From NCBI GenBank assembly GCA_937936705.1, contig CALHCP010000019.1, positions 1-34,957 of the forward strand: 34,957 nucleotides of DNA, in the 5' to 3' direction. Below the pieces are notes generated by a model. It had not been told where the DNA came from and ran no database searches. It saw only the letters and a program-made list of their open reading frames with translations. Of this stretch, positions 7,052 through 9,550 are shown piece by piece. The translations under genes were made by a program, and so were the position numbers. This DNA comes from an uncultured cyanobacterium (GTDB lineage: Bacteria; Cyanobacteriota; Cyanobacteriia; Gloeomargaritales; Gloeomargaritaceae). The stretch's first letter is position 1. The number at the start of each line of letters is the position of its first letter.

Positions 7052-7327
7052 ATGGCTGACTCCCTTATGTACCACGATGAGCACTATGTCCTGCTCACTC
7101 CCGATGCCCCGGCAGCATTTTGTACGCCGGCCGAACTGCGAGAAAAATTAGCCGGTTTTCTGGCGGAGATGACCGAACTTAGCCCGGAATTAACCGCCTA
7201 TGGGACGACGGCCGAACGGGTCGAGTATTTGCTCAACACGGGTTGTCGCTTGGAACGCAGCGCCGATGATTTTATCGAGTGGTATGTTGTGCGTTTGGAA
7301 AAACCCCCAATGACTCCCCGGCGATGA
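7052..7327 (+). CDS. CRR7-like (DUF3571) protein, NDH-1 related
   Basis: A 91-residue protein matching the chlororespiratory reduction 7 family. It has the LMYHDEHYVLL start, a CTPAELREKL helix, an AERVEYLLNTGCRLE segment and the WYVVRLEK end. In plants CRR7 is needed to accumulate a stromal subcomplex of chloroplast NDH; the role in cyanobacteria is inferred from homology. ndhM elsewhere in the window fits an NDH-1 connection. The stop codon overlaps the plsY start (ATGA), so the two are probably translationally coupled, although their functions are unrelated. A copy of the dispersed repeat lies in its upstream region. Confidence 0.75.
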   Translation: MADSLMYHDEHYVLLTPDAPAAFCTPAELREKLAGFLAEMTELSPELTAYGTTAERVEYLLNTGCRLERSADDFIEWYVVRLEKPPMTPRR

Positions 7328-7968
7328 TAGTGAATGGGTTGTTAACGGTGCTGGCTTATTTGTGCGGTTCCTTCCCCCCCGGCTATGTGGCGGGACGACT
7401 GGCGGGGATCGATATTCGGCAGGTGGGTTCCGGCTCCACCGGGGCAACCAATGTCCTGCGCACCCTGGGGAAATGGCCGGCCTTGTTGGTTTTCAGCCTG
7501 GATGTGGGCAAGGGCATTCTGGCGGTGGCGCTGGCTCGGGGGTTGTGGCAGCAGTTTCCCGACCTCGACCCCGGTGAGCAGCGTCCCTGGTGGGAATTGG
7601 TTTATGCGTTGGCGGCGGTGGTGGGGCACAGCAAATCCCTGTGGATCAACTGGCAGGGGGGCAAATCGGTGGCGACGGGGTTGGGGCTGTTGGCGTTTTT
7701 TGCCTGGCCGGTGGCCGTCGGCGCCTTGGCCATGTTTGGCCTGTTGGTGGCCACCGTGCGGATCGTTTCCGTGGGTTCGATTGGGGCGTGTTTGACGGCA
7801 ACCGGGCTGGCCATCGGTTGGGGCATTCCCCCGGCGTATCAGATGTATGTGTTGTTGGCAACCATTTATATTATTTGGTGTCACCGCAGTAACATCCAAC
7901 GCCTGCTCAAGGGCACAGAACCCCGTTTGGGAGAGGGGAAATCGCCCGGAGAATCGTCGGCGCTGTGA
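7324..7968 (+). CDS. plsY: Glycerol-3-phosphate acyltransferase PlsY
   Basis: A 214-residue polytopic membrane enzyme that transfers acyl groups from acyl-phosphate to glycerol-3-phosphate, the first step of phospholipid and glycolipid synthesis. Family motifs are clear: GSFPPGYVAGRLAGIDIRQ at the N-terminus, VGSGSTGATNVLRTLGK, LDVGKG, and VGHSKSLWINWQGGKSVATGLG. The ATG at 7324 lies in an ATGA overlap with the CRR7 stop and gives the correct length; the longer frame from 7279 runs inside the CRR7 gene. A Pro/Gly/Ser-rich soluble tail ends the protein. Confidence 0.92.
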   Translation: MIVNGLLTVLAYLCGSFPPGYVAGRLAGIDIRQVGSGSTGATNVLRTLGKWPALLVFSLDVGKGILAVALARGLWQQFPDLDPGEQRPWWELVYALAAVVGHSKSLWINWQGGKSVATGLGLLAFFAWPVAVGALAMFGLLVATVRIVSVGSIGACLTATGLAIGWGIPPAYQMYVLLATIYIIWCHRSNIQRLLKGTEPRLGEGKSPGESSAL

Positions 7969-8071: not shown

Positions 8072-9028
8072 ATGCTCAACCCCGGTGATGTCCAGATTAA
8101 AGCTGACTCTCGTAATCAGGTCACGGGCGACCGCATGGTAACGGTATTATTAACCCGGTTTCCCTATACGCTTTTGCAGGAATTGGCCACGCACCGCCTG
8201 TTACGCCAAGGGGGATTGGTGGAGATTTTAGGGGATACCAATCCCTTTACGGAAGTGACCAGTCGTTCCAGCGGTTCTTCGCGGGCCATTCCGGTGGAGC
8301 GGGTGATTCAACGCATTGTGGATGACCCCTTTATTCCCCGGTTTAGCCAGCAGCAAAAGGGGATGCAGGGCAGGGAAGTGGACGACCCGCAATTTCAAGC
8401 TGAAAATGAGCGCATTTGGCGCAACGCCTTAGAGCAAAATATAGCCTTAGCACGCCAATTAGCCGCCCAAGGGGTGCATAAACAACACGTCAACGATCTC
8501 CTCAAACCCTTTCTGCGGATTCCCATTTTAATTACGGCGACCGAGTGGGATAATTTCTTTCATTTACGCACCGATAAACCCTGCCGCCCGGAATTTCGCG
8601 CCTGGGCAATCGCCATACAGCAGGCCATCCACCATTCCCAACCGCAGGAATTGTGCCCTGGGGAGTGGCATATTCCCTTTGGGGATCAAATGCCCCCGGA
8701 TTTATCCCTATGGGAACGATTGCAGGTGGCTACCGCCCGCTGTGCCCGCCTCTCCTACGCCACCCACACGGGCAAACGGGATGTTCAAGAAGATGTGCGC
8801 CTGCATGAACAATTACTCAATGACGGGCACATGGGGCCTTTTGAACATAGCGCGGTGGCGGTGGCGGATTATTTCACGGCTCCCCCCAAGATGCCCTGTT
8901 ATGCCTATTTGCCGGGGCAAACCACGCCGGTTTTTACCCGCAATTTCCGCGGTTTTTATAGTTATCGCGCCTGGGTCGAAGACCGGCCTTTATCTAGCAG
9001 TTGTTTACCCACCCATGCACCGGAGTAA
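8072..9028 (+). CDS. thyX: ThyX-like flavin-dependent thymidylate synthase, permuted
   Basis: A 318-residue protein of the long ThyX-like type. The nucleotide and flavin binding motif is near residues 40-74: ATHRLLRQ, then about 20 inserted residues, then SRSSGSSRAIP, in place of the classical RHRxxSxNExSxRY. A WDNFFHLRTDKPCRPEFRAWA segment (about 165-190) matches the ThyX helix with its LR and E-R residues. The ARLSY ... GHMGPFEH block, normally at the ThyX N-terminus, appears after it (about 225-270), so the motif order is circularly permuted. The expected reaction is dUMP to dTMP with methylenetetrahydrofolate and FAD; activity of this variant is inferred. It heads a tight run with dcd, 6 bp from that gene's ATG. 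Confidence 0.75.
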   Translation: MLNPGDVQIKADSRNQVTGDRMVTVLLTRFPYTLLQELATHRLLRQGGLVEILGDTNPFTEVTSRSSGSSRAIPVERVIQRIVDDPFIPRFSQQQKGMQGREVDDPQFQAENERIWRNALEQNIALARQLAAQGVHKQHVNDLLKPFLRIPILITATEWDNFFHLRTDKPCRPEFRAWAIAIQQAIHHSQPQELCPGEWHIPFGDQMPPDLSLWERLQVATARCARLSYATHTGKRDVQEDVRLHEQLLNDGHMGPFEHSAVAVADYFTAPPKMPCYAYLPGQTTPVFTRNFRGFYSYRAWVEDRPLSSSCLPTHAPE

Positions 9029-9034
9029 TTGGCT

Positions 9035-9550
9035 ATGATTTTAACCGACCACGAATTGAATCAACTCTGTCAGGGGAATCCCCCCCTGGTGGAACCGTTT
9101 GATCCGAGTTTGATTAACCCGGCATCGGTGGATATTCGCATCGGTACATCGGGGTTGATCGAACAGGAAGACGGCGACCCGATTCCCATTGATTTTAGCC
9201 CTTATGATGCCAATTCACCCTATATGGTGGAACCGCAGATGTGGCTGTTGGTGGCTTCTTTGGAGATTTTTCACATCCCGGAATTTACCGCCGGGGAGGT
9301 GCGCCTCAAATCCTCCCGCGCCCGTGAGGGGTTTGATCTCTCCTTGGCGCTCTGGCTTGACCCCGGTTGGCAGGGTTCCCACTTGACCATGGCGTTACGC
9401 AACGCCACGCGGTTCCGGCGGCTGGGCATCTATCCGGGGTTGAAAATTGCCCAGGTGATTTTGCATCGGTTATCCAACCGACCCCATCGCAGTTATGCCG
9501 AAACCGGGCGGTATAATTTTGACCGGCAGGTGCAAGGTTCTAAAGGTTAA
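9035..9550 (+). CDS. dcd: dCTP deaminase-like protein, catalytic Glu apparently Ala
   Basis: A 171-residue protein of the dCTP deaminase/dUTPase fold. Motifs seen are NPASVDIRIG, LKSSRAREG, LDPGWQG and a C-terminal TGRYNFDRQ. Such enzymes convert dCTP to dUTP, the precursor of the dUMP used by thymidylate synthase, which suits the adjacent thyX. In Escherichia coli Dcd the catalytic glutamate (Glu138) is in VLEFYN. The aligned segment here reads TMALRN, so the Glu position appears to be Ala. The ATG at 9035 is preferred over an in-frame TTG at 9029. It is unclear whether this protein is a deaminase, a dUTPase-like enzyme or a non-catalytic relative. Confidence 0.75.
   Translation: MILTDHELNQLCQGNPPLVEPFDPSLINPASVDIRIGTSGLIEQEDGDPIPIDFSPYDANSPYMVEPQMWLLVASLEIFHIPEFTAGEVRLKSSRAREGFDLSLALWLDPGWQGSHLTMALRNATRFRRLGIYPGLKIAQVILHRLSNRPHRSYAETGRYNFDRQVQGSKG

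What the first reader, a model, noticed from the sequence alone, without database searches (positions are those of the whole stretch)
8072..9028. ThyX-like protein with circularly permuted motif order
In classical ThyX the ARxSY ... GHxxPFEH block precedes the RHRxxS motif, and a helix with LR ... EIR follows. Here the order is HR ... SSRAIP (residues 41-74), then WDNFFHLR ... EFR (about 165-190), then ARLSY ... GHMGPFEH (about 225-270). There are also about 20 extra residues between THR and the serine-rich part. Long ThyX-like proteins with an SSRAIP motif occur in phages and some bacteria; the permutation is my inference from motif order.
Basis: partly seen in the sequence, partly recalled or inferred. 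Interest (0 to 1): 0.6.

Follow-up and report, generated by a model that had tools for sequence, protein, structure and literature searches.

The report
Rearranged ThyX thymidylate synthase in Gloeomargarita
A cyanobacterium of the genus Gloeomargarita appears to make the DNA building block thymidylate with a ThyX enzyme whose two halves are joined in swapped order; about a thousand phage genome records and several other cyanobacteria carry the same rearranged enzyme, which lacks a catalytic tyrosine known from ordinary ThyX.

Summary
ORF 8072-9028 (+, 318 aa) encodes a ThyX-family protein in which the ARxSY...GHxxPFEH block lies after the HR...SSRAIP...NFFHLR block. A profile rotation test confirms a permutation-type rearrangement: against classical ThyX the native order aligns 153 columns (score 82.5); rotating the cut to residues ~200-220 gives 193 columns (score 121, E=2e-17). 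Controls behave as expected. In 113 of 113 relatives where both blocks are found, the order is swapped. AlphaFold2 models hit only ThyX in the PDB list, over the unmoved part. The window belongs to Gloeomargarita. All seven genomes of the genus carry the gene beside dcd, under purifying selection, and lack ThyA, classical ThyX and a convincing thymidine kinase, so it is very probably their thymidylate synthase. The same form is in Pseudanabaena, Thermosynechococcus and ~1,000 phage records (PHROG 85). S88, R90, R174, S30, H53 and E58 of Thermotoga ThyX are kept, but catalytic Y91 is alanine in 133 of 134 relatives. Unresolved: whether strand beta-1 moved too (strict circular permutation) or only helices H1-H3. 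I found no earlier description in the open papers searched. New variant of a known kind; biochemistry untested.

The parts
8072..9028 (+). Permuted-order ThyX-family gene (318 aa)
   Evidence: 83-84% identical in six other Gloeomargarita genomes
8090..8116 (+). N-terminal strand, residues 7-15; possible counterpart of classical beta-1 (unresolved)
   Evidence: AF2 strand E7-15, also E2-10 in phage relative; sequence test inconclusive
8132..8197 (+). Start of the B block: strand beta-2, helix and THR (counterpart of RHR, T. maritima 78-80), residues 21-42
8201..8257 (+). Insert of about 19 residues in the active-site loop (residues 44-62), shared by all seven Gloeomargarita, low model confidence
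8261..8293 (+). SRSSGSSRAIP, residues 64-74: S69=S88, R71=R90, A72 in place of catalytic Y91
   Evidence: profile alignment; counts
8546..8569 (+). WDNFFHLR, residues 159-166: N161=N169, R166=R174 (dUMP activation in T. maritima)
   Evidence: PMC8316439
8660..8686 (+). GEWHIPFGD, residues 197-205: conserved junction between old C-terminus and moved block
   Evidence: H200 134/134, W199 131/134
8708..8848 (+). Moved A block, residues 213-259 (helices H1-H3): ARLSY with S228=S30, GHMGPFEH with H253=H53, E258=E58
8942..8968 (+). C-terminal NFRGFYSYR, residues 291-299, conserved N291/R299
9035..9550 (+). dCTP deaminase family gene (dcd), 6 bases downstream; nucleotide-metabolism neighbour
   Evidence: present downstream in all seven Gloeomargarita
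7279..7968 (+). plsY, upstream housekeeping neighbour (context: not a prophage)

Best explanation
[quoted passage not shown] Inferred mechanism: the protein forms the usual ThyX tetramer, binds FAD, reduced by NAD(P)H, takes a one-carbon unit from methylene-tetrahydrofolate onto flavin N5 and passes it to dUMP to make dTMP. In Gloeomargarita it is very probably the only thymidylate synthase, placed directly before dcd, which supplies dUTP and hence dUMP. Shown here: family membership, the changed order, the conserved residues, the absence of detectable alternatives and purifying selection. Inferred: tetramer, flavin and folate chemistry, and that another group replaces the lost Tyr91.
For: Rotation scan peaks only when the cut lies in residues ~200-220: 193 columns, score 121, E=2e-17, versus 153 columns and 82.5 for native order; repeated with phage member L017: 130 versus 86, while a reversed classical profile scores ~14 and two classical groups align best unrotated. 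Moved block alone 64.7 versus at most 18.6 in 100 shuffles. 113/113 relatives swapped, 0 in classical order. AF2 of the window protein (pLDDT 80, pTM 0.81) and of L017 (pLDDT 94, pTM 0.89): all 50 listed PDB hits of each are ThyX, prob 1.00. S69, R71, R166, S228, H253, E258 (=S88, R90, R174, S30, H53, E58) kept in 133-134 of 134. Among 242 cyanobacterial genomes 40 have the permuted form and 37 of these have no detected ThyA and no other ThyX; no convincing thymidine kinase in the Gloeomargarita genomes (three weak partial hits in 370-381-residue frames). dN/dS about 0.04-0.12 where computable.
Against: Tyr91, whose loss costs T. maritima ThyX two to three orders of magnitude (PMC8316439, PMC11940539), is Ala in 133/134 members; R78 is Thr in 130/134 (though several classical cyanobacterial ThyX also have Thr there). 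No biochemical or genetic test is known to me. Sequence does not place beta-1. The window's genome is only 83% complete; the argument rests on near-complete relatives.
Confidence: 0.88

Rival explanations
1. Segment transposition rather than strict circular permutation: beta-1 stayed at the N-terminus and only helices H1-H3 moved from between beta-1 and beta-2 to the C-terminal end.
For: AF2 shows a nine-residue N-terminal strand directly before beta-2 and only short strands between the last helix and the moved block.
Against: Sequence profiles do not favour beta-1 at the N-terminus over after the B block; both lie within shuffled-control scores. A new, unrelated strand could also have filled the place.
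Confidence: 0.4
2. The protein is ThyX-derived but does something else, such as making a modified pyrimidine nucleotide for phage DNA, and cellular copies are passengers.
For: Catalytic Tyr91 is replaced in the whole family; the family is widespread in phages, some of which modify pyrimidines (own knowledge).
Against: 37 of 40 cyanobacterial genomes with it have no other detected thymidylate synthase; strong purifying selection and a dcd neighbour in Gloeomargarita.
Confidence: 0.07
3. Chance motif resemblance or an assembly, frameshift or prophage artefact.
For: Pfam coverage is partial and the TIGR02170 cut-off is missed.
Against: Same order in seven Gloeomargarita genomes and hundreds of relatives; neighbours are housekeeping genes plsY, dcd, ldpA.
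Confidence: 0.01

Closest known systems
Classical ThyX / flavin-dependent thymidylate synthase (Pfam PF02511 Thy1, TIGR02170; T. maritima TM0449)
   Same: Fold, S88, R90, R174, N169, S30, H53 and E58 counterparts, NFxxLR and GHxxPFEH motifs; probable role as sole thymidylate synthase
   Different: Order of blocks; Tyr91 replaced by Ala; Arg78 by Thr; new conserved GMQ, KQxxN and GEWHIPFGD motifs; longer chain
PHROG 85 (phage 'thymidylate synthase')
   Same: Colinear match over residues 29-303 at E=1.3e-30; same permuted order in relatives; ~1,000 GenBank phage records
   Different: The window copy is chromosomal, with a genus-specific loop insert and a D142/K145 charge swap of the family's R/E pair; most similar viral proteins are about 35-44% identical
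Long tandem ThyX of cyanobacteria (about 550 aa, L221-L224)
   Same: ThyX family; holds the parts A-B-A-B from which B-A could be derived
   Different: Two ThyX-like halves; no special similarity to the permuted family was seen
ThyA (PF00303)
   Same: Same reaction product in the cell
   Different: Unrelated fold; absent from Gloeomargarita and nearly all genomes with permuted ThyX

Membership tests
ThyX / Thy1 (PF02511) | Match to the family profile above curated cut-off | tested here: met
   Pfam 37.6 bits vs cut-off 24.8, in two pieces; 48/48 relatives match at E<=0.1. NCBI's classical-ThyX model TIGR02170 is below cut-off, 31.6 vs 87.9.
ThyX / Thy1 (PF02511) | [R/T]HRx7S signature | tested here: met
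   HRx7S in 125 of 134 relatives; the window copy has THR and the serine, but a 19-residue insert breaks the spacing.
ThyX / Thy1 (PF02511) | ThyX fold | tested here: met
   AF2 plus Foldseek: listed PDB hits all ThyX, prob 1.00, sequential part only.
ThyX / Thy1 (PF02511) | Classical order: ARxSY/GHxxPFEH block before RHR block | tested here: not met
   Order reversed in the window protein and in 113/113 relatives.
ThyX / Thy1 (PF02511) | Catalytic S88, R90, Y91 | tested here: inconclusive
   S and R kept in 134/134; Y91 is Ala in 133/134, while Tyr in 35/35 classical cyanobacterial ThyX.
ThyX / Thy1 (PF02511) | FAD-binding tetramer, dTMP synthesis from dUMP, methylene-THF and NADPH | not testable with these tools
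   Only indirect: sole candidate synthase in the genomes.
PHROG 85 | Full colinear profile match | tested here: met
   E=1.3e-30, residues 29-303 in one stretch.
Strict circular permutation of ThyX | Whole N-terminal part, beta-1 included, moved to the C-terminal side | tested here: inconclusive
   H1-H3 clearly moved; beta-1 not placed by sequence, AF2 hints that it may have stayed.

The most novel reading that the evidence does not exclude
The permuted proteins form a distinct, catalytically rewired class of ThyX: without Tyr91 the acid that helps release water from the flavin carbinolamine comes from elsewhere, for instance from the invariant His200 or Trp199 of the junction motif or the invariant Tyr229 beside Ser30, and this class has replaced the older synthases in several cyanobacterial lineages, perhaps through phages.
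Probability: 0.4. Interest if true: 0.75.

Novelty: new variant of a known kind. Interest (0 to 1): 0.6.

Why it matters
ThyX is an essential enzyme, absent from humans and studied as a drug target, whose mechanism has been worked out almost only on the classical chain order. A natural rearrangement used as the sole synthase by whole cyanobacterial genera, including Gloeomargarita (generally held to be the closest known free-living relatives of plastids; own knowledge), and by about 2% of sequenced phage records shows that the fold tolerates it. A family that does without Tyr91 is a ready-made test of the proposed catalytic roles. Annotation tools that rely on full-length classical models can miss or underrate these enzymes and so wrongly suggest thymidine auxotrophy.

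Tried and rejected
Co-acquisition of thyX and dcd from a phage: the Gloeomargarita-type dcd was not found beside permuted thyX in any of the viral loci; its best phage matches are about 40% identical. DHFR as a discriminator: canonical DHFR is rare in all groups tested, so its absence proves nothing. Single origin of cyanobacterial copies: the quick tree pairs Gloeomargarita with Leptolyngbya PCC 7375 and places Pseudanabaena and Thermosynechococcus among other bacteria, but an AU test does not reject one cyanobacterial clade (p=0.79), so the number of acquisitions and the donor are open. Origin from the tandem ThyX: possible in principle, no specific similarity found. Placing beta-1 by profiles: inconclusive. 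Assigning the counterpart of R147: the two alignments disagree, so left open. Literature: 'ThyX' with 'circular permut' gave two papers; the one opened uses the terms for unrelated things and the other was not opened; other searches found phage and cyanophage ThyX mentions, and the passages read mention no permutation. Subscription papers and preprints were not searchable.

Full report
OBSERVATION. The ORF at 8072-9028 (+) starts with ATG and encodes 318 residues. Pfam Thy1 is found at E=2.5e-9 with profile positions 104-188 on residues 93-189, while TIGR02170 positions 15-60 lie on residues 218-262: the order is reversed relative to the family. phmmer against PDB sequences gives T. maritima ThyX in two pieces, again reversed.

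PERMUTATION TEST. A profile of 134 relatives was aligned to a profile of 35 classical cyanobacterial ThyX (built). Native order: 153 columns, classical 58-214, score 82.5. Rotating the permuted profile step by step gives a single plateau when the cut falls at residues ~200-220: 193 columns, classical 18-214, score 121, E=2e-17. The moved block alone scores 64.7; 100 column shuffles reach at most 18.6, and rotation with a shuffled block falls back to about 83. With phage member L017 as reference the numbers are 86 native and 130 rotated; a reversed classical profile gives about 14; two classical subgroups compared with each other align best unrotated. Rearranging the classical profile to B-A raises the score against the native window profile to 133. 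A classical HMM finds both blocks in 113 relatives, always with A after B.

STRUCTURE. AF2 on the window protein (30 sequences): pLDDT 80, pTM 0.81, with the loop insert poorly modelled. AF2 on phage relative L017 (48 sequences): pLDDT 94, pTM 0.89. Foldseek against the PDB: all 50 listed hits of each are ThyX with probability 1.00, aligned over about 150-220 columns and TM 0.4-0.6 by target length, as expected if a sequence-ordered aligner can match only the unmoved part. Helix order after the last B helix is helix-loop-helix-short helix, as in H1-folate loop-H2-H3 of T. maritima ThyX (PMC11940539). An N-terminal strand precedes beta-2 in both models; whether it is classical beta-1 cannot be told from sequence, so strict circular permutation versus transposition of H1-H3 remains open.

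ACTIVE SITE. From the alignments and counts over 134 relatives: S88=S69 (134), R90=R71 (134), R174=R166 (133), N169=N161 (132), S30=S228 (134), H53=H253 (134), E58=E258 (134). Roles of S88, Y91, R90, R174, H53, S30 and R78 are from PMC8316439 and PMC11940539; those of E58 and N169 are own knowledge. Y91, which is Tyr in all 35 classical proteins, is Ala in 133 of 134 permuted ones; R78 is Thr in 130. The junction motif GEWHIPFGD (His200 134/134) is among the most conserved stretches of the family and has no clear counterpart in the classical profile. Gloeomargarita alone carries D142/K145 where 126 others have R/E, a charge swap that suggests a salt bridge.

GENOME AND DISTRIBUTION. Named relatives at 82% identity are Gloeomargaritales VI4D9 and Gloeomargarita SKYG116, so the window is from that genus. 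All seven genomes of the genus have the gene (83-84% identity to the window) with dcd downstream; dN/dS is about 0.04-0.12 where it could be computed, with synonymous sites often near saturation. In 24 cyanobacterial genomes tested in detail each has exactly one kind of synthase: classical ThyX, tandem ThyX, permuted ThyX or ThyA. In 242 genomes, 40 hold full-length permuted ThyX: 7 Gloeomargarita, 22 of a genus identified as Pseudanabaena by 97% identity to a named record, 10 Thermosynechococcaceae and one other. Only three of the 40 also show ThyA or another ThyX (G231, 6% contaminated; G150; G222). Thymidine kinase is absent apart from weak partial hits in 370-381-residue frames. Outside cyanobacteria the permuted form occurs in scattered bacteria, Acinetobacter plasmids, viral contigs and 1,026 of 50,697 phage records, 998 of them colinear over at least 80% of the Leptolyngbya relative used as query.

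EVOLUTION. Gloeomargarita pairs with Leptolyngbya PCC 7375 (SH-aLRT 99), next to a viral contig; an AU test does not reject one cyanobacterial clade. Acquisition through phages is plausible but not shown. A tandem-duplicated ThyX, the usual route to a permutation, exists in the same class, without evidence that it is the ancestor.

LITERATURE. No paper in the open library was found that describes a permuted ThyX; ThyX is reported in phages of Pseudanabaena and Alteromonas without comment on order in the passages read. Subscription literature was not searchable, so priority is uncertain.

VERDICT. A real, widespread and apparently undescribed rearranged variant of ThyX, very probably the thymidylate synthase of Gloeomargarita. 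The chemistry and the Tyr91 question need experiments.

Noticed in passing
L114, L115 and further cyanobacterial genomes: The ThyA-like proteins of cyanobacteria that lack ThyX are mostly 498-576 residue open frames matching PF00303 only over about positions 90-225; they look like a divergent long ThyA and occur almost only where no ThyX was found.
   Followed up: no
L221-L224 and L102: Tandem ThyX proteins of about 550 residues with two Thy1-like halves in several cyanobacteria; in L102 the gene is split between two frames.
   Followed up: partly
G038, G066, G123, G201: Open frames of 604-706 residues with split PF02511 matches, possibly inteins inside ThyX.
   Followed up: no
window 9035-9550: The dcd protein falls just below NCBI's dCTP deaminase cut-off (89.2 vs 92.8 bits) and matches a phage family (PHROG 1663) better, E=4e-41; closest phage proteins are about 40% identical.
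   Followed up: partly
window 8495-8506 (ThyX residues 142-145): R/E pair of the family is swapped to D/K in all seven Gloeomargarita and nowhere else among 134 relatives.
   Followed up: partly
L031, L187: Inserts of 23-24 residues at the same loop position as the Gloeomargarita insert; L031's (GDIEILEDI) resembles the window's (GLVEILGDT).
   Followed up: no
NZ_CP144253 and 137 other Acinetobacter plasmid records: Permuted ThyX relatives sit on Acinetobacter plasmids (68-118 kb among those listed), beside a ribonucleotide reductase gene in two of the records listed; these may be phage-plasmids.
   Followed up: no
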